Below, piece by piece: positions 767-8,990 of a stretch of DNA of 64,000 bases (the first letter of the stretch is position 1; every line of letters begins with the position of its first letter). Origin of the DNA: Sinorhizobium arboris LMG 14919 (lineage in GTDB: Bacteria > Pseudomonadota > Alphaproteobacteria > Rhizobiales > Rhizobiaceae); the NCBI RefSeq assembly GCF_000427465.1, contig NZ_ATYB01000014.1, forward strand, positions 2,317,570 to 2,381,569, given 5' to 3'. The translations under genes were made by a program, and so were the position numbers. The notes under the pieces are model-generated. The model made no database searches and had not been told where the DNA came from. It saw only the letters and a program-made list of their open reading frames with translations.

Positions 767-799
767 ACGCGCGGCGCTGTAGGCTCGCACGCCGCGCGT
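767..799 (-). terminator. GC-rich hairpin at the end of the DUF cluster
   Basis: A perfect 10-bp inverted repeat (ACGCGCGGCG at 767-776 and CGCCGCGCGT at 790-799) directly abuts the stop codon of the DUF2333 gene. There is no clear T-run, so it may be an mRNA 3' stabiliser or Rho-assisted stop and not a classical terminator. Confidence 0.45.
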
Positions 800-2019
800 C
801 AACGGGCAAGAATATCGCGCATCTCCACGAGGTTCGATCGAACCCGGAGGATGTAGAAGCCCATCGTCGCGAGATGCGTCGGCATGATCCAGCCGTCCTC
901 GCGGCCGTTCGAGATGATCAGCGGCTGAATTCTGAGCGCAGCGCGAAGCTGCTTCATCGTTTCGGTATAGATCGGCGCCAGACCGCGCTGGCTGACGACA
1001 TTCTCGAAATCGCCGCCGGCGGCCGAGAGGATGCCGTAATAGCCGTAGAGCTGTCCGAAGGCGAACCAGAAGCGGTCGTCCGCCCGGGTGTCGAACCAGC
1101 CGCCATTGTGGAACTCCGAGCGCTCGCGGATGATGGCCGAGGTATTGCCGAGATCGTTCGCGACCCGGTCGAGGAACTCGACCATGTTGTCGGAACGGCC
1201 GTCGAAGATCGCCTCGCACTTGCCGAGAGAAACGTTGAATTTCCTGAGATCGCGCATGGCCGAGCGATAGAAGCTCGGGGTCGGCGTCTTGGGGCCGAAG
1301 GGGTTGAGCCCGAAATACCAGGTCTCCTCGTCGAACTGGATATTGCCGCGCGCGCTCTGCAGGTCGGCATTGACGCCCGATGTGCCGCGCACGCGTCCGA
1401 GCGAATCGACGAGTTCCACCGCCGTGCGGCGCACCGCCTGGTTGATGCCGCGCTGGAAGGACGCCTTGTTGTCCAGCCACGGCGTATCGTCCCAGTCGAG
1501 CCCGAAAAACCCGAGCTTGTAGCCCAGCATGGACGATATCCAGGCATTCTGATTGACATTGAGGTCGATGAGATCGGCCGCCACGTCGACGATGGCCGAG
1601 GTCTGGCAGACCGTCCCGGCCGGAAGCTGCGCCACGGCAAGGGCCTCGGTCGTACTGTCGGCACCGGAGGGAGCGACCGCGGCCCGGCTTGCGTCGGCCG
1701 CGGCGCCGGACTGTCCCGTCGTCGTTCCGGGGCCGCTGACGGGCGAACCGGCCGGCAGCTTGCGCTCGGCGAGTTTGTAACGATCGACATAATCAGGGTC
1801 GAAATTCGTCCAGGCTTGCGTCTGCCAGACAAAGTAGCCGTAGAACAGGACCAGGCAGAACAGGATCAGGGCGATCGGGCCCTTGATGATCCAGCTTCGT
1901 TCCCGATACCAGTTGCCGAGCGCGACGAACGGCCAGAGAAGCCACGCCACCGCCAACCCGATGCCACGGCCGATCGCCGTAAAAACACGCTGAAAGAACG
2001 CAACGATCGGATCGAACAT
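799..2019 (-). CDS. DUF2333-family membrane-anchored protein
   Basis: This 406-aa protein resembles the DUF2333 family of uncharacterised alphaproteobacterial proteins; its biochemical role is unknown. An amphipathic or hydrophobic stretch at about residues 14-35 is followed by a clear membrane segment at about 48-66 (ALILFCLVLFYGYFVW). A Ser/Thr/Ala-rich linker (about 90-125) leads to a large, presumably periplasmic, soluble domain. It is the last gene of the cluster and starts 3 bp after the stop of the DUF6638 gene, so the two are almost certainly co-transcribed. As the only predicted transmembrane protein of the set, it could be the membrane anchor of a complex; that is inference from layout. 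Confidence 0.8.
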   Translation of the reverse strand: MFDPIVAFFQRVFTAIGRGIGLAVAWLLWPFVALGNWYRERSWIIKGPIALILFCLVLFYGYFVWQTQAWTNFDPDYVDRYKLAERKLPAGSPVSGPGTTTGQSGAAADASRAAVAPSGADSTTEALAVAQLPAGTVCQTSAIVDVAADLIDLNVNQNAWISSMLGYKLGFFGLDWDDTPWLDNKASFQRGINQAVRRTAVELVDSLGRVRGTSGVNADLQSARGNIQFDEETWYFGLNPFGPKTPTPSFYRSAMRDLRKFNVSLGKCEAIFDGRSDNMVEFLDRVANDLGNTSAIIRERSEFHNGGWFDTRADDRFWFAFGQLYGYYGILSAAGGDFENVVSQRGLAPIYTETMKQLRAALRIQPLIISNGREDGWIMPTHLATMGFYILRVRSNLVEMRDILAR

Positions 2020-2022
2020 GTT

Positions 2023-3312
2023 TTATTCCTCTTTGAGACCGTAGAGCTTGTGACGGAAGGCGGCCTTGTCCCTGAGATATGTGCCGGTCAGTGTCGCAAC
2101 AACATATTCGCGGAAGTTTTCGCTGTAGCCCTCATAGGCTTTGTAGAAGCCTTGCTTGTCGAACACGAACCGCGAGACAAAGTCGCGCGGAACGAGCTCG
2201 GAGACCAGCCGGTTGACGAGCCATTGATCCTGATGCTGCGGGGCGGCGCGGACAAGCAGGAAGCGATTCTCGGGCGCGACGTCCTGCATCCTGATCGTAC
2301 CCGTCGCGGCGATCGCCCGTGTCATTTCCTGAATGAAAGGATAAGTCCCGTCGCGCGCCACGAGCGCCGCATTGCGGTGGATCCAGGTCTGCAGCCATAT
2401 TCTGTCGACATGCATCAGGTCCGCATTCGGATCGGCGGCGTTGACGAGCCCGCGGATCACCATATCCGCCCGATGCTGGAATAGGCCGGACTCCTGCACC
2501 CAGGAAGCCTGCGGCAATTGCAGCCGGTTCGTCGTCGCCAGGAAATCGTAAATGCGGGCATGGTCGGTTATGGCGATGTAGCTCACCTGCCAGGGCCGCG
2601 ACCGGCGGAAGCCGGGCACCGAAGGATCACAGATGACGGTGGTCGTCTTCGCGTCGAGAAAGACGTAGACGCCGCCGAAGTGATTGGCCCAGAAGGCCTC
2701 ATGGCGGAAGACGAGCTCGTCCGGCACGAGCACGTTCTGCCTTATGTCGCCGGTCGTCCTGGCGAGCTCCACCATCCGGCCGAGCATCGCGTCGTCCGCC
2801 CACGCGTTCGGCACCTTCTTCAGCCGGTCCACAAGCTCGCGCAGTTCGGTCGCCTTGCCGAGCATGTCTTCCGCCGAAAGCACCCGGAAGCGGACTTCGT
2901 TGATGGAAAGCAGATCGTCTATGTCTTCGACGACCGAGACCGAGTCCTCGATCTCGCCATAAAGCGCATCCTTGAGCGTTATCGCATTGATCGCGCGGCC
3001 ATTGGCGTTGAAGAACTCGTGCATCAGCGCCGCCGTGTTGGAGAAGCTCGTGTGGACGACCGGCAGTTCCGCCTGCGCCGGCGTCAGGATAATGAAGCGC
3101 CGGTTGACCCGGTTCGGATCCAGATAGTCGCGATCGCCGATTTCCTCGGCTATCTCGGGCGAGAAGCCGGTCATGTCGATGCTGAACCGCTGAAGCTCTG
3201 TCGGTTTCAGCCCGAAGCCTTTGAGGGCCTTGTTATAGCGCGCAACGAGATGCGGCTCGGAAATGTCGAGCAGCCGTCCATAGATGAGCTCCGCTTCCAG
3301 AAGACGCTTCAT
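2023..3312 (-). CDS. DUF6638-like protein of unknown function
   Basis: The protein is 429 aa from the ATG at 3312, with no signal peptide or membrane segment visible. I place it in the DUF6638 type from overall sequence impression; no catalytic motif is recognisable. The reading frame extends 12 codons upstream to a TTG, but the ATG at 3312 has a GAGGAA ribosome site and gives a more natural N-terminus (MKRLLEAELIYGRLLDI). Acidic, Leu-rich segments around residues 100-170 suggest a helical region. The stop lies 3 bp before the DUF2333 start, so the two genes form a unit. Confidence 0.65.
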   Translation of the reverse strand: MKRLLEAELIYGRLLDISEPHLVARYNKALKGFGLKPTELQRFSIDMTGFSPEIAEEIGDRDYLDPNRVNRRFIILTPAQAELPVVHTSFSNTAALMHEFFNANGRAINAITLKDALYGEIEDSVSVVEDIDDLLSINEVRFRVLSAEDMLGKATELRELVDRLKKVPNAWADDAMLGRMVELARTTGDIRQNVLVPDELVFRHEAFWANHFGGVYVFLDAKTTTVICDPSVPGFRRSRPWQVSYIAITDHARIYDFLATTNRLQLPQASWVQESGLFQHRADMVIRGLVNAADPNADLMHVDRIWLQTWIHRNAALVARDGTYPFIQEMTRAIAATGTIRMQDVAPENRFLLVRAAPQHQDQWLVNRLVSELVPRDFVSRFVFDKQGFYKAYEGYSENFREYVVATLTGTYLRDKAAFRHKLYGLKEE

Positions 3313-3396
3313 GCGGCCATGTTCCTCATCGGCCCGCCCCCTGTTCAACCCGGATGAAGAGAGGGGCAGACCGAGACGCCAAGTTCAACACCCGAG

Positions 3397-3801
3397 TCAT
3401 CTCTTCTTCTCCCCCGGAACGAAGGTCAAATCCGCACTCCTCACTTCCCGCGCCAACCGCTTTTCGAGCACCGCCACGATCGTCTCCAGCACCGCCGTGC
3501 GGTCATTGAAGATGTCGGTATTCCAGAAGCGGAGCACACTCCAGCCGTTCCCGACCATGTACCTGTCGCGCCTCTCGTCGCCGCCGCCGATCTGATGCTG
3601 GCTGCCGTCGACCTCGATAACCAGCCTCACGTCACGGCAGGCGAAATCAGCAAAATAAGGACCGATGGGGACCTGCCGGACGAATTTGAAGCCGTTGAGA
3701 CGCCGGTCTCGCAGTTCCGACCAGAGGATCGATTCCGCGTCGTTGTCGGCCTGCCGCAGACTCCTCGCGCGTTCCGTCCGGCGTTCGTTCGCTCCTCTCA
3801 T
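3397..3801 (-). CDS. DUF559 (Vsr/REase-like) endonuclease domain protein
   Basis: This 134-aa protein is nearly all a DUF559 domain, a PD-(D/E)XK relative of very-short-patch repair endonucleases. Recognisable features are an early Glu in the AESILWSELR helix, the block VRQVPIGPYFADFAC with a candidate metal-binding Asp, and the core strand LVIEVDGSQH. Such proteins are usually small, solitary and of unknown biological role. Its position is odd: it sits between the DUF6638 gene and the AAA+ gene, with a RIME-like palindrome directly upstream, as if inserted into an otherwise compact operon. The ATG at 3801 is used; no strong ribosome site is visible. Confidence 0.85.
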   Translation of the reverse strand: MRGANERRTERARSLRQADNDAESILWSELRDRRLNGFKFVRQVPIGPYFADFACRDVRLVIEVDGSQHQIGGGDERRDRYMVGNGWSVLRFWNTDIFNDRTAVLETIVAVLEKRLAREVRSADLTFVPGEKKR

Positions 3802-3817
3802 GATTGCGCTCTGCCCT

Positions 3818-3959
3818 GGGGTCTGCCCCTCACCCTAACCCTCTCCCCGCTTGCGGGGAGAGGGGACACCGTTGCGTTCTGCCTCAGCCTCCACAGACAA
3901 GGTCGAACTCGTCCCCTCGCCCCGCCTGCGGGGAGAGGGTTAGGGTGAGGGGCAGACCC
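3818..3959. repeat. RIME-like intergenic palindromic element
   Basis: The 142-bp segment has long complementary ends: GGGTCTGCCCCTCACCC at 3818 pairs with its reverse complement ending at 3959, with nested CCCCGC/GCGGGG hairpins inside. The terminal arms are over 30 bp. This matches the style of Rhizobium-specific intergenic mosaic elements. It lies upstream of the DUF559 gene and downstream of the AAA+ gene and could act as an mRNA hairpin between them. Confidence 0.8.
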
Positions 3960-3985
3960 AAGCGCAAACCTCGCAAACACAACCT

Positions 3986-5902
3986 TCACCCCTGCCACCT
4001 GCCCTCGCGCTTCATCGTCTCGATCTCTCGGACCGCCCTCTCGCGCTGGCGCTCGCGGCGGATGATCTCGCCGACGGCCGCATCGTCGGACTTGTCGGTG
4101 TAGCGGAACTCGCTATCGGCATAGCGGTTGATTTCCTGCAGCACCATGTCGATGGTGATCGGGCCGCGCAGTTCCTCGATCATGGCTTTCTTCTCGTCGT
4201 AGGGCTTATGCATGAACGAGCCCGCGTCCTTGAACCAGTCGTCGGGCACTTCCACGTCCATGGCCCTCAGCTTGACGGCATCGGTGATGTTCCTGATTGC
4301 ACGTCCGGTAAAGCGGGGTTCCGCCTGCTTGATCATGTGCAGATAGGCGCCGACATCGGCAAGCGTGGCAATCTTGCCCTTCTCCTTCTGATATCGCTCC
4401 CAGACGGCGGCAAGCCCCTCCTCCTGCGGCCGCGCATGCGCAGCGTAGGATTGCGAGACTGCGCGCTTGATCTCCTGACCCGCAAAGAGCTCATGCTCCC
4501 CGAGCGGAATCTGATGGTTCTTGCCGACGAGCAGGGCGAAGATATCGATGTAGTCGTCCTCGGTCTGCGGTCCGTCGACCAGCCAGCGCGCGCCGGCGCG
4601 CTGGCGCAGCGCGTCGTCGACATTTTCCGGATGGTTCGAGAACATGCCGAAGGTACAATTGCCGCGCACCACCGTCGAGGCGCCGGCGAAGCTCTCCATC
4701 AGCACCGCCGTCACCTCGTGCTGTCCGGCCGAGGCGCGATCGTCCGAGCGCTTGGCCGCCACCTGATCGACATCGTCGATCGTGCCGAAGCCGATCGCCC
4801 GCGGGTTCATGACGTTGTTGACGAATTCCTTGCAGTTCTGGCCCGATTTGCCCTGATAGGAGGAAATCTGGTCGACTCCGAAATTCTCGTAATGAAACGG
4901 GTAGCCTGCAATGCCGCAATATTCATGCAGCATGCCGGCGAGCATCTGGATCAGGATCGTCTTGCCGGTACCCGGCATGCCGTCGCCGATGAAGGTGAAG
5001 AGAAAGCCGCCGAGTTCGACGAAGGGATTCATCTGCCGGTCGAAGTCATAGGCCATCAGCATCTTGGCGAGCTTCAGCGCCTGGTATTTGGCGATGTGGT
5101 TGCCGATGATCTCTTCGGGCTTTTTGAAGGTCATAATCAGCGGCTTGCGCTTCTGCCCCGGCGCGACGTCGAAACCGTCGAGCGTGAAATCGTCCTGGTC
5201 GAGCCGGATATGCACGCTCTCGAAATTCTGCAGCCCGGTGAAACGCGCCTTGCGCGCGATCAGACCCTCGATCGCGATGCGGGAAAAGGCGCGGGCCCGC
5301 GCGATCAGCGCAAGCTCGTCCGGCGCACCGGCGATGCTGCGATCGAGACCGGCGACCATGTATTTCACCGCGTCCTGGGGCGTATCGAAAAGGAAATCCG
5401 GCTCCGCGGCATCGTCCACCGGCTCTCCCTCTCCCTGCAGCGTCGCGCCGAGATAGGCGGCAAGTGTGAAGGCGGCGATATAAGCCGAAGCCGAGAGCAG
5501 CGCCTTGAAATGAGCCGCATCTTCGCCGGCGAGCGGCGCGGTGGCGTTACGCGCCTGCAACTGCTCAAGGCTCGTCTGACGAGCGAAGACATCGGCAACG
5601 GCCAGCGCCACCTGGATGCCGCGGCGGGTACGATAGAGCACCGAATGCTGCACCGGTGACAGGAGCGGATCGGCGCCGCGCACCGCCTGGATGGTACGCG
5701 CAAGTTCGACCTCGCGGCTGCGCCGCTGACCGCCGGTCGAGACCGTCGAGACGAAGCGTCGCCCCGTTCCTGCCAGAGGTGCGCCGGACGCACCCTCGTC
5801 CCGCTCGAGAATGGCGAGCTTGGTGACCAGGCTCTGAGCCACCGCCTGATGTCTGGCGATCTCGTCTTCATGCAGCGTCGTCAGCCCTGTGTTCAAAGCC
5901 AT
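3986..5902 (-). CDS. AAA+ ATPase of uncharacterised cluster
   Basis: This is a 638-aa cytoplasmic ATPase. The N-terminal ~290 residues are mostly helical with no recognised domain. The AAA+ module follows: Walker A GDGMPGTGKT at about 306-315, a degenerate Walker B-like strand IGFGTIDDVDQ at about 370-380, a sensor-1 Asn in FSNHPENVD near 423, and arginine-finger candidates in ALRQRAG near 433-435. The C-terminus ends in a charged helix rich in Arg and Glu. Co-transcription with the 382-aa protein is implied by a 3-bp gap. Such ATPases usually remodel a partner protein; the substrate here is unknown, and the neighbouring coiled-coil and DUF proteins are the natural candidates. Confidence 0.85.
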   Translation of the reverse strand: MALNTGLTTLHEDEIARHQAVAQSLVTKLAILERDEGASGAPLAGTGRRFVSTVSTGGQRRSREVELARTIQAVRGADPLLSPVQHSVLYRTRRGIQVALAVADVFARQTSLEQLQARNATAPLAGEDAAHFKALLSASAYIAAFTLAAYLGATLQGEGEPVDDAAEPDFLFDTPQDAVKYMVAGLDRSIAGAPDELALIARARAFSRIAIEGLIARKARFTGLQNFESVHIRLDQDDFTLDGFDVAPGQKRKPLIMTFKKPEEIIGNHIAKYQALKLAKMLMAYDFDRQMNPFVELGGFLFTFIGDGMPGTGKTILIQMLAGMLHEYCGIAGYPFHYENFGVDQISSYQGKSGQNCKEFVNNVMNPRAIGFGTIDDVDQVAAKRSDDRASAGQHEVTAVLMESFAGASTVVRGNCTFGMFSNHPENVDDALRQRAGARWLVDGPQTEDDYIDIFALLVGKNHQIPLGEHELFAGQEIKRAVSQSYAAHARPQEEGLAAVWERYQKEKGKIATLADVGAYLHMIKQAEPRFTGRAIRNITDAVKLRAMDVEVPDDWFKDAGSFMHKPYDEKKAMIEELRGPITIDMVLQEINRYADSEFRYTDKSDDAAVGEIIRRERQRERAVREIETMKREGRWQG

Positions 5903-5905
5903 GGC

Positions 5906-7054
5906 TTAAACCTCGCTCACCACCTGGTTGCCGGATATGACATGCACCTTGTAATCGCCGAAGACCTGGGTGGCCTCGCCGGACGCGTAGAGCGCCTGAT
6001 AGGCATCGTGCGGCACCAGAGCATGCTTCTCGTATGCGCTGACCCCCATCCGCGCCGCCTCGAGATTGGCGGTATCGATGTGAAACTCCTCCTGCGCCGG
6101 CGTGGAAGACCAGAAGCCACGCGTCGCCGGCCGCTCTGCCTTCGAGAAGACCTCTTGCACCGTCCAGGTGAGCAGCCACGCATTTTCCGTCTTGCGCACC
6201 CTGGAGAGAATGTCGTTGATCCTCGCATTGTTCTCGGTGATGCCGGCCGAATAGAAGGGGCCGAGCACGATCCGCCGAAGCTGCTTGGGATGCAGTTCCG
6301 AAAAATCCCTGTCGAGATTGGTGGCGATCGTCACCGGCGTCAGCGAATAGGCGCTGTTCTTGGAGGCGAAATCGTCGAAGCGGCTTGCGAGCTCCGGATT
6401 GAGCAGACCGCCGACCGGCAGAGGAATCTCGACTCCTGGATTGAGCTTGCCGTCCCCGGTAACCAGCATCTCGACGATGTTTTTCGAGGAATCCTCGATC
6501 GTCGCCATATAGATCATGGGCAGCGTCTGGCTGCCGTCGAACGCGCCCCAGGACACGACGTAGAAGGGTCGCATCGTCTTCGGATTGACCGCGACCCGGA
6601 TCGTCTCCGGCAAAACGAAGGGCGAGAAGATATCTCCCTTGCCGATCTGTTCCAGATAGAGCCTTTCGGCCATGCGAGCCTGAAGCGCCTCGGGAAACGC
6701 TTTTTGCCTCAGGATGAAATCGACCATTTCCTCGCGCAGCGCATCGGCGGACGGGATGCTCGCAAGCCGCTTCTCCGCATTCTGCCGGTCGTTTTCGAGT
6801 TCCAGCACGTTCTGGAAAACGGGGAAGCCGCTTTCGGCGCGGGAGATACGAAACTGCTCGACGAAACCGATCCGGTTTTCCCAGCAGGCGATCGAAGCTT
6901 TCAGCCGGGCAAGATAGGGAACGATGACCTCGCCGACGACCGTATTGCGGTAGAGCGGCGAGTTGCGGTCTCCGAGGAACAGCTCAAGGCCTGCGAGCGC
7001 TGCGCGGATGGAGCCGAAATATTGCCTGACGGCCGGAGAAATGGCGGTATTCAT
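5906..7054 (-). CDS. Uncharacterised 382-aa cluster protein
   Basis: I do not recognise this protein. It has no signal peptide, no membrane segment and no cofactor motif. The N-terminal ~120 residues look helical (LARLKASIACWENRIG and ELENDRQNAEKRLASI), followed by a probable mixed alpha/beta part (residues about 150-382). It lies between the coiled-coil gene (61 bp upstream) and the AAA+ gene (3 bp downstream), so it probably belongs to the same complex or pathway. The ATG at 7054 is supported by the frame and by spacing from the upstream gene. Confidence 0.75.
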   Translation of the reverse strand: MNTAISPAVRQYFGSIRAALAGLELFLGDRNSPLYRNTVVGEVIVPYLARLKASIACWENRIGFVEQFRISRAESGFPVFQNVLELENDRQNAEKRLASIPSADALREEMVDFILRQKAFPEALQARMAERLYLEQIGKGDIFSPFVLPETIRVAVNPKTMRPFYVVSWGAFDGSQTLPMIYMATIEDSSKNIVEMLVTGDGKLNPGVEIPLPVGGLLNPELASRFDDFASKNSAYSLTPVTIATNLDRDFSELHPKQLRRIVLGPFYSAGITENNARINDILSRVRKTENAWLLTWTVQEVFSKAERPATRGFWSSTPAQEEFHIDTANLEAARMGVSAYEKHALVPHDAYQALYASGEATQVFGDYKVHVISGNQVVSEV

Positions 7055-7115
7055 GGCAGCTCTCCCGGCAAATGCCGAAAGGCGGTCGGAGATCGGGTCA
7101 TTGCCGCCTTGCCGA

Positions 7116-8204
7116 TCACTGCTTCACATAATTTGCGGCATTGTGCTTGTCCATCACCGTCTGGAAGCGGCGCGCGAAGGCGTCGTCGGCGAGTTTCTTG
7201 CGCCGCTGGATATCCTGGGTCGCAAGCATGTTCTTTTCATGCATCTCGAGCAAGTCGCCGATGTGGCGCTGTGCGGCCGCGCCGATACCGGCCATGGTCT
7301 CCTCGGCGGCCGTGTCCACCTGGCTGCCGAGCGTGTTGATCTTGTGCGCCACGTCCTGCTGCGCAGCCGTCTTCAGCGAGTCCTCCAGCGCCTTGTAGAG
7401 AACGATGCGCTGCTCGGTGTCGATGGTCAGCTTGTTGATCAGCGTGTTCTGCGCGGCGATCTGGTTGTTGAGCGAGTCGACAAAGGTCTGGAACATCGCC
7501 GTATAGCGTTCGAGCGTCTGGCTCTCGGCCAGAAGCTCCTGCTCCTTCGCCTGCCTTTCGTTGTACTCGGTCGCAAGCTGCGAACGCTCTGCCTCGAGGT
7601 CGGTGCGGGTCTTCTGGTCGGTCGAGGCCGCGATCCTGTTCTCGATGTCGAGCAGCAGAGGGTTGAGTTCCTCGATCCGCTTCTGAGTCTGTTCCAACGC
7701 CGCCATCGTGCCCTTGCGGCGCTCGATCACCTGGATGAGGCTCTGCTCGGAGGTCTTGTAGCGCTGGTCGAGGATGGCCTTCTGGTCCTTGAGAATGCCG
7801 ACGATGGTATCCGATTTAGAAAGCAGTTCCTGCAAATTGCCGGCAAGCGACATGTTGCGCACGCGATCGGTGCGCAAACGCTGCATCTTTTGCCTGGAAA
7901 AGATGCCGATGAACTTCTCGTAGCCGGTGTAGCTCTTCATGCTCTCGAACTCGGCGCCGAAAACATTGGTCGCATCTTCGAGGCCAATGATCAGATCGGC
8001 GATATTGGCTTCCATCACCTTCTGCTGATTGACGACGTCCTGGATGCGGGCGTTCTCGATGTCGAAATCGACGTCGCCGAGCTTTGTGTCCGCCTTGGCG
8101 AATTGCTCGAGGACGACGCCGGACTGCTCGAGCTTGCTGCGCATGTCCTTGACCACGGTCCTGGTCTTCTCGATCTCGGCATCAAAATTCTGAAGCGTCG
8201 CCAT
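7116..8204 (-). CDS. Coiled-coil protein, possibly TelA-like
   Basis: This 362-aa soluble protein is almost wholly alpha-helical, with long heptad-like stretches (for example ELNPLLLDIENRIAAST and QLATEYNERQAKEQELL). The spacing of a Leu/Ile-rich helix followed by RIVLYKALEDSL recalls the TelA (toxic anion resistance) family, but I cannot establish that. It is the first gene of the minus-strand cluster, with a good ribosome site (GGGGAGAAGGCA before the ATG). A coiled-coil protein led by its own promoter and followed by an AAA+ ATPase and a membrane protein suggests a scaffold or an ATPase substrate; this is inference. Confidence 0.75.
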   Translation of the reverse strand: MATLQNFDAEIEKTRTVVKDMRSKLEQSGVVLEQFAKADTKLGDVDFDIENARIQDVVNQQKVMEANIADLIIGLEDATNVFGAEFESMKSYTGYEKFIGIFSRQKMQRLRTDRVRNMSLAGNLQELLSKSDTIVGILKDQKAILDQRYKTSEQSLIQVIERRKGTMAALEQTQKRIEELNPLLLDIENRIAASTDQKTRTDLEAERSQLATEYNERQAKEQELLAESQTLERYTAMFQTFVDSLNNQIAAQNTLINKLTIDTEQRIVLYKALEDSLKTAAQQDVAHKINTLGSQVDTAAEETMAGIGAAAQRHIGDLLEMHEKNMLATQDIQRRKKLADDAFARRFQTVMDKHNAANYVKQ

Positions 8205-8402: not shown

Positions 8403-8990
8403 TCAGCCTTCGCGCATCCGGTCTTCCCAATGGCGACGGCAATAGGATACGTATTTCTCATTGCCGCCGACATCAACCTGCGCCCCCTCGCGCATGACCT
8501 TGCCGCGACCGTCGAGCCGAACGACCATCGTTGCCTTGCGCCCGCAATGGCAGATGGTTCTGACTTCGCGCAGTTCGTCGGCAATCGCGAGCAAAGCCAT
8601 GGAACCGGGAAAAAGCTTGCCTTGGAAGTCCGTCCGCAGGCCATAGGCCATGACCGGAATGCCGAGGCGGTCCGCCACCCGCGCCAACTGCCAGACCTGT
8701 TCTTCACCGAGGAACTGCGCCTCGTCTACGAAGACGCAGGCGATCTCACCGGAGCCATCACCATTCAGACGCTCGATCAGCCCGTAGAGGTCGTCCTCTC
8801 CGCGGAAGGGGATGGCGTCCGATTCCAACCCGATGCGAGATGCGATGCGCCCCTCCCCTGCGCGGTCGTCGAACGCTGCTATCAGCATAACGACTCGCAT
8901 GCCGCGCTCCTGATAGTTGTAGGCGGCCTGCAGGAGCAGCGTGCTCTTGCCCGCGTTCATCGTCGCATAACTGAAATAAAGTTTGGACAT
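8403..8990 (-). CDS. tdk: Thymidine kinase
   Basis: Phosphorylates thymidine to dTMP in the salvage pathway. The 195-aa length fits the type II (TK1-like) family. Visible motifs are the P-loop MNAGKST (11-17), the catalytic Glu in FVDEAQF (Glu90), and a zinc site formed by Cys147-x-Cys149 and Cys184-x-x-His187. The lasso segment around YGLRTDFQGKLF contacts the base. The gene appears monocistronic; its upstream region is shared with divergent choX. Confidence 0.97.
   Translation of the reverse strand: MSKLYFSYATMNAGKSTLLLQAAYNYQERGMRVVMLIAAFDDRAGEGRIASRIGLESDAIPFRGEDDLYGLIERLNGDGSGEIACVFVDEAQFLGEEQVWQLARVADRLGIPVMAYGLRTDFQGKLFPGSMALLAIADELREVRTICHCGRKATMVVRLDGRGKVMREGAQVDVGGNEKYVSYCRRHWEDRMREG

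What the first reader, a model, noticed from the sequence alone, without database searches (positions are those of the whole stretch)
799..8204. Compact cluster of an AAA+ ATPase, a coiled-coil protein, DUF6638, DUF2333 and an unknown protein
Seen: five genes on one strand with 3-61 bp gaps (apart from one insertion), encoding a coiled-coil protein, an unrecognised 382-aa protein, an AAA+ ATPase with intact Walker A, a DUF6638-like protein and one membrane-anchored protein. Inference: they form one machine, with the ATPase remodelling a coiled-coil partner at a membrane anchor. The layout recalls TelA/Ter-type or PspA-like envelope or defence systems, but no member has an assigned role that I know of. 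It is the best candidate here for an undescribed system.
Basis: partly seen in the sequence, partly recalled or inferred. Interest (0 to 1): 0.75.

Follow-up and report, generated by a model that had tools for sequence, protein, structure and literature searches.

The report
Undescribed four-protein AAA ATPase machine
Four neighbouring genes of unknown function, one encoding an ATP-driven protein-pulling motor and one a rod-like coiled-coil protein, stay together and in the same order in distantly related bacteria and are nearly always present or absent together, so they very probably form one molecular machine that seems not to have been described yet.

Summary
The cluster is real and the coordinates hold, with one correction: the DUF6638 gene probably starts at 3312, not 3348. 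The functional unit is smaller than proposed: four soluble proteins in fixed order, coiled coil (CC) – P382 – AAA ATPase – DUF6638. In 199 genomes of the order all four occur in 29 of the 34 that have any. The same order recurs in Vibrio at 25-39% identity. The membrane protein is not a constant part: DUF2333 follows in one clade, unrelated DUF1523 in another, neither in Vibrio, and DUF2333 remains in 27 of 63 family genomes without the ATPase. The ATPase has an aligned pore-loop tyrosine, Walker A, sensors and Arg-finger candidates, with Walker-B Glu replaced by Asp. Models of P382 and DUF6638 are confident but match no solved fold significantly. TelA or PspA membership of CC is not supported. 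The AAA–DUF6638 junction often holds toxin–antitoxin or DUF559 genes. No paper naming DUF6638 was found. Most likely: a cytosolic AAA remodelling complex acting on the coiled coil; that mechanism is inferred.

The parts
7116..8204 (-). CC: 362-aa coiled-coil protein, first gene of the core
   Evidence: family alignment A2 with 60% mean column identity; no Pfam family above cut-off
5906..7054 (-). P382: 382-aa protein, core, no known family
   Evidence: model pLDDT 88.7, pTM 0.87
3986..5902 (-). AAA ATPase, 638 aa, core; Walker A G306-T315, pore loop Y349-Q-G-K-S353, Walker B D376-D377, sensor 1 N423, Arg-finger candidates R433/R435, sensor 2 R534
   Evidence: numbering of the window protein; motif names recalled
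2023..3312 (-). DUF6638 protein, core (probable start 3312, 429 aa; listed ORF 2023-3348)
   Evidence: Pfam PF20343 6.8e-75; start; model pLDDT 88.8
799..2019 (-). DUF2333 protein with N-terminal hydrophobic segments; neighbour, not part of the obligate core
   Evidence: Pfam PF10095 4.4e-16; hydrophobic segments 16-34 and 47-65; found without AAA in 27 family genomes
3397..3801 (-). DUF559 endonuclease-like gene, accessory insertion at the AAA-DUF6638 junction
   Evidence: PF04480 1.2e-34; a DUF559 match at the same junction in 17 of 78 named loci
3812..3966 (.). 56-nt inverted repeat pair (91% complementary) beside the DUF559 gene
   Evidence: its 22-nt core motif occurs only here in the 64-kb window

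Best explanation
CC, P382, AAA and DUF6638 are subunits or obligate partners of one cytosolic machine. The AAA protein is most likely a ring-forming, peptide-threading ATPase: its conserved pore-loop tyrosine would grip a substrate, and the Asp in place of the Walker-B Glu would make hydrolysis slow or regulated. The rod-like CC is most likely the substrate or the assembly that is taken apart or remodelled; P382 and DUF6638 are adaptors that load or couple it. DUF2333 (or DUF1523) is a neighbouring envelope protein that may dock the machine in some lineages but is not required. Shown: gene content, order, co-occurrence, motifs, loss in place. Inferred: the complex, threading, CC as substrate, slow ATPase. 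I put about 0.9 on 'one functional unit' and about 0.4 on 'the AAA remodels CC'; the score below is for the whole.
For: Co-occurrence in the same 199 order genomes: AAA 30, DUF6638 32, P382 29, CC 32; all four in 29, any in 34. Of the five exceptions, G281, G321 and G349 have members at contig ends, so others may be cut off; G212 and G374 keep only a diverged CC. In 151 family genomes all 88 with AAA have CC; P382 and DUF6638 were not searched in that sample. Order CC-P382-AAA-DUF6638 holds in 72 of 80 named loci (one with P382 and one with DUF2333 split over two reading frames); the other 8 are cut by contig ends (these loci were found through AAA). The same four-gene order recurs in V. parahaemolyticus and V. 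vulnificus. Pairwise distances of the four proteins correlate, Spearman 0.78-0.90, 59 loci (expected also from shared ancestry). The pore-loop, Walker-B and sensor-1 regions align with Afg2, an i-AAA protease and PAN. The Asp-Asp Walker B is invariant in 16 aligned sequences and present in Vibrio.
Against: No physical interaction, substrate or phenotype is shown. Fold searches of P382 and DUF6638 gave no significant match, so their adaptor role is a guess. CC was not modelled; its polymer or substrate nature rests on sequence. Part of the co-occurrence and distance correlation reflects common descent. A diverged CC persists beside DUF2333 without the other three genes in 5 of 20 examined sites, so CC may also act alone or with DUF2333.
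Confidence: 0.45

Rival explanations
1. Envelope-stress machine of TelA/Ter or Psp type, anchored by DUF2333: the AAA protein would remodel a membrane-bound coiled coil.
For: A protein with predicted hydrophobic segments accompanies the core in 58 of 60 loci of one set (DUF2333 42, DUF1523 16; the other two are L057, cut by a contig end, and Vibrio). A ChvI-bound fragment inside S. meliloti SMc02733 is reported (PMC3687685, one passage seen), but that SMc02733 lies in this operon is recalled gene numbering, not tested.
Against: CC is not recognisably TelA or PspA by profile comparison. DUF2333 stays at the corresponding site in 20 of 20 examined stretches of ATPase-less genomes. Vibrio and R. 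leguminosarum pRlX5 show neither membrane protein beside the core. No hydrophobic segment passes the threshold in the four core proteins of the window.
Confidence: 0.15
2. General protein quality control: the AAA protein is an unfoldase or disaggregase, and CC, P382 and DUF6638 are its adaptors rather than substrates.
For: The solved proteins with the best sequence scores are Afg2, an i-AAA protease, PAN and Rpt ATPases.
Against: Found in only 88 of 151 family genomes and 30 of 199 order genomes: dispensable and patchy for a general chaperone. CC is the most conserved of the four between the window and L034 (83%, against 69, 64 and 61% for AAA, P382 and DUF6638), unusual for a generic adaptor.
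Confidence: 0.2
3. Anti-phage or anti-plasmid conflict system that travels as a cassette.
For: Cassette transfer: one genome of another class (G423) nests among f24 genomes, and two genomes of one genus (G203, G250) carry AAA genes of different clades (some of these are fragmented assemblies). Toxin-antitoxin and DUF559 genes accumulate at one junction. Four Vibrio copies are on ~0.9-Mb replicons.
Against: tdk upstream and fhs downstream in 43 of 72 named loci with both operon ends in hand; one copy per genome, the few double matches looking like pieces of one gene; no PADLOC family beyond weak generic AAA hits; no match to the AAA protein in 50,697 phage records.
Confidence: 0.15

Closest known systems
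Classic AAA ATPases (Afg2, i-AAA protease, PAN; PF00004)
   Same: Walker A, pore-loop region with aligned tyrosine, sensor-1 region and the region before the Arg-finger candidates align with solved AAA proteins
   Different: Walker B reads Asp-Asp, not Asp-Glu, in all 16 aligned sequences; about 300 residues precede the Walker A motif and matched no Pfam family; near-obligate company of three unknown proteins
TelA / Ter tellurite-resistance systems
   Same: A coiled-coil protein of similar length
   Different: No PF05816 match, profile comparison 0.8% with 4 TelA sequences and 0.1% with a larger set; the window genome has no TelA match while having this operon, and TelA lies at other places in the 4 of 10 operon-bearing genomes searched that have it
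PspA/Vipp1 with regulators
   Same: Coiled coil plus ATPase in one operon is reminiscent
   Different: hhalign 4.5% to E. coli PspA, reversed control 0.2%; PspF is an enhancer-binding ATPase of another type (recalled)
DUF6638 (PF20343), DUF2333 (PF10095), DUF1523 (PF07509)
   Same: Members by Pfam
   Different: Families of unknown function; this work places DUF6638 in a four-gene unit and shows DUF2333 and DUF1523 as exchangeable neighbours

Membership tests
AAA (PF00004) | Profile match above curated cut-off | tested here: met
   42.5 bits against 21.2
AAA (PF00004) | Walker A, sensor 1 Asn, Arg-finger candidates, sensor 2 | tested here: met
   invariant in 16 sequences; alignments to solved AAA proteins reach residue 461 at most, so sensor 2 rests on motif recall
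AAA (PF00004) | Canonical Walker-B Asp-Glu (usual, not required by the Pfam profile) | tested here: not met
   Asp-Asp in 16 of 16 and in Vibrio
TelA (PF05816) | Profile match of the coiled-coil protein | tested here: not met
   no match at E <= 1; hhalign 0.8%, then 0.1% with more sequences, no better than reversed CC at 0.1%
Ter systems | TerD, TerC or XpaC genes beside the operon | not tested
   only recurrent neighbour clusters were looked at, not these families by profile
PspA/IM30 | Profile match of the coiled-coil protein | tested here: not met
   no Pfam match at E <= 1; hhalign 4.5% to the single E. coli PspA sequence, reversed control 0.2%
DUF6638 (PF20343) | Profile match above cut-off | tested here: met
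   253 bits against 27
DUF2333 (PF10095) | Profile match above cut-off | tested here: met
   59.2 bits against 22
T-fold enzymes (urate oxidase, DHNA, GTP cyclohydrolase) for P382 | Same fold as solved T-fold proteins | tested here: inconclusive
   [not shown]
Known defence systems (PADLOC) | System-specific profile match | tested here: not met
   five proteins scanned (DUF559 not among them); only TRIP13 1.4e-4 and IetA 0.006 or weaker to the AAA domain, nothing for the other four

The most novel reading that the evidence does not exclude
A bacterial filament-dismantling machine: a slow AAA threadase (Asp in Walker B) with two dedicated adaptors takes apart a cytosolic coiled-coil polymer, a functional parallel to Vps4 with ESCRT-III that is unrelated to PspA, and whose operon is repeatedly colonised at one junction by toxin-antitoxin modules that may penalise its loss.
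Probability: 0.13. Interest if true: 0.85.

Novelty: new variant of a known kind. Interest (0 to 1): 0.58.

Why it matters
It defines a four-protein unit found in Alpha- and Gammaproteobacteria (the ATPase in 88 of 151 genomes sampled from the window's family) with three members of unknown function, two of which gave confident models without a significant match among solved structures. It turns four separate 'hypothetical' or DUF annotations into one testable system with a motor, and it separates the likely core from the DUF2333/DUF1523 neighbours that annotation would lump with it. Natural knock-outs exist: family members that lost the core in place but kept DUF2333.

Tried and rejected

Results against my reading: a diverged CC followed by DUF2333 without the other three genes (L074, L075, L192, L193, L205) shows that CC can outlive the ATPase. 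The class-wide sample found the ATPase in only 3 of 190 genomes, the window's own included, the phylum-wide sample DUF6638 in 26 of 398: patchy, not universal. The 27 ATPase-less genomes with DUF2333 include incomplete ones (G839, 68% complete with a strong CC match; G872, 83%), and one of the 114 DUF2333 matches is below the curated cut-off.
Full report
OBSERVATION. Gaps are 3, 3 and 61 bp; between AAA and DUF6638 lies a DUF559 gene (3397-3801) with an inverted repeat. tdk (8403-8990) and fhs flank the cluster; the fhs name comes from the S. meliloti annotation of the same arrangement. Pfam names DUF2333, DUF6638, AAA and DUF559. P382 matched nothing in Pfam, NCBIfam, PADLOC or PHROGs; CC nothing above cut-off in the first two, nothing in PADLOC and only E 0.63 in PHROGs.

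THE UNIT IS FOUR GENES. In one set of 199 genomes of the window's order I searched four members separately: AAA 30, DUF6638 32, P382 profile 29, CC profile 32. All four occur in 29 of the 34 genomes with any; pairwise Fisher p is 2e-30 to 5e-34, without correction for kinship. Of the five exceptions, G281, G321 and G349 have their members at contig ends and G212 and G374 have only a diverged CC. In 151 genomes of the family AAA is in 88 and CC in 92; every AAA genome has CC; P382 and DUF6638 were not searched there. Order and strand CC-P382-AAA-DUF6638 hold in 72 of 80 named loci, two of them with one gene split over two frames; the other 8 are cut by contig ends. These loci were found through AAA, so the reverse direction rests.

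REACH. AAA was found in 3 of 190 genomes sampled across the class, the window's own included, and DUF6638 in 26 of 398 across the phylum, 0 of 14 control genomes. A protein search of the plasmid collection found 10 records, among them four Vibrio replicons of about 0.9 Mb at 41% identity. In the two that I fetched CC, P382, AAA and DUF6638 follow each other in the same order, with mfd next; profiles recognise them at 3e-95, 2e-82, 5e-202 and 2e-83; window-to-Vibrio identity is 37, 28, 39 and 25%. Among the 120 listed of 3481 relatives of the Vibrio ATPase are names such as Neptuniibacter, Spartinivicinus, Psychromonas, Roseovarius, Sulfitobacter and Cohaesibacter. No phage record matches the AAA protein.

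THE MEMBRANE PROTEIN IS A NEIGHBOUR. In a 60-locus AAA tree DUF2333 accompanies 42 loci, DUF1523 (PF07509) 16, and two have neither: Vibrio, and L057, which is cut by the contig end. The DUF2333 loci lie on one side of a branch (support 80/47, weak) and the DUF1523 loci form a starred 17-row group together with L057. A count of 71 in the same call holds some DUF1523 loci twice and is not used. DUF1523 and DUF2333 show no homology. R. leguminosarum plasmid pRlX5 carries the four genes without a DUF2333 or DUF1523 match in the stretch. In the family sample DUF2333 is in 114 of 151 genomes, with AAA in 87 and without it in 27. I fetched 20 of these 27 sites: in 20 of 20 a match to the window's choline-type ABC ATPase lies within the 13-19 kb stretch with DUF2333, and tdk or fhs in several; P382, AAA and DUF6638 have no match there, and a diverged CC is left in 5 of 20. 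In two stretches (L195, L201) DUF2333 points the other way relative to tdk. So the core was most likely lost in place while DUF2333 stayed. This is against DUF2333 being an obligate anchor.

TRANSFER. One genome of another class (G423) carries the complete operon with DUF1523 and nests among f24 genomes; G203 and G250 of one genus carry AAA genes of the two different clades. Several of these are fragmented assemblies, so mis-binning is not excluded. Among named loci inheritance looks mostly vertical: tdk upstream and fhs downstream in 43 of 72 with both operon ends in hand.

THE ATPASE. The window protein aligns with Afg2, an i-AAA protease and PAN (Rpt subunits are in the tables). In the 16-row alignment G306-T315 except position 309, Y349-Q-G-K-S353, D376-D377, N423, R433, R435, R439 and G533-R534 are invariant. 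Y349 aligns with a tyrosine of the same loop in Afg2, the i-AAA protease and PAN (the names pore loop, sensor and Arg finger are recalled). Walker B is Asp-Asp where the solved relatives shown mostly read Asp-Glu. Slow or regulated hydrolysis is an inference from general knowledge of AAA mutants.

INSERTION HOT SPOT. Among named loci, 48 of 78 have 150 bp or more between AAA and DUF6638; 17 of these hold a DUF559 match, 12 a ParE/RelE-like toxin match, 7 a PIN-domain toxin match and 12 none. The other junctions reach 150 bp in 18 of 75, 14 of 76 and 7 of 77, with one DUF559 match and no match to the toxin queries. Only gaps of 180 bp or more were scanned, with five query proteins; eight of the small proteins were checked against Pfam. 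S. meliloti Ak57 has an ISRm16 copy there too. Related loci share insertions, so the number of independent events is smaller than these counts; at least four kinds of element arrived at one place.

INTERPRETATION. Best supported: a cytosolic AAA remodelling machine with CC as its likely substrate or scaffold and P382 and DUF6638 as dedicated partners. The unit is well supported; the mechanism is inference. Rivals are an envelope-stress machine, general quality control, and a conflict system; none is excluded. No paper found names DUF6638 (library of 5.39 million open papers, so subscription-only work is not covered).

Noticed in passing
AAA-DUF6638 junction, window 3313-3985 and 48 of 78 named loci: One intergenic position of a conserved operon repeatedly holds different small elements: DUF559 genes, two kinds of ParE/RelE toxin-antitoxin pairs, Phd/PIN pairs, and in one S. 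meliloti record an IS element.
   Followed up: partly
L074, L075, L192, L193, L205: Strongly diverged coiled-coil gene directly beside DUF2333 at the site where the other three core genes are missing.
   Followed up: partly
L174, L175 (Vibrio replicons of 938,616 and 925,374 bases): The four-gene core sits on ~0.9-Mb Vibrio replicons typed non-mobilizable, next to mfd and near an RNase H-family gene and LysM and SIMPL proteins; contigs of 949 and 795 kb appear for Neptuniibacter and V. owensii.
   Followed up: no
L037 and L057 (G250, G203): Two genomes of one genus carry AAA genes of the two different clades (DUF2333 type and DUF1523 type), suggesting replacement of the whole cassette or mis-binning.
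   Followed up: partly
L176 (CP090106.1): A record called pSymB of S. meliloti Ak57 is 3.7 Mb and carries tdk and fhs, so it looks like a chromosome labelled as a plasmid.
   Followed up: no
window 799-8204 (possible S. meliloti SMc02733): A ChvI-bound fragment is reported inside SMc02733 (PMC3687685, one passage); by recalled numbering this tag may lie in this operon, which would link it to the envelope regulator ExoS/ChvI.
   Followed up: partly
[not shown]
   Followed up: partly
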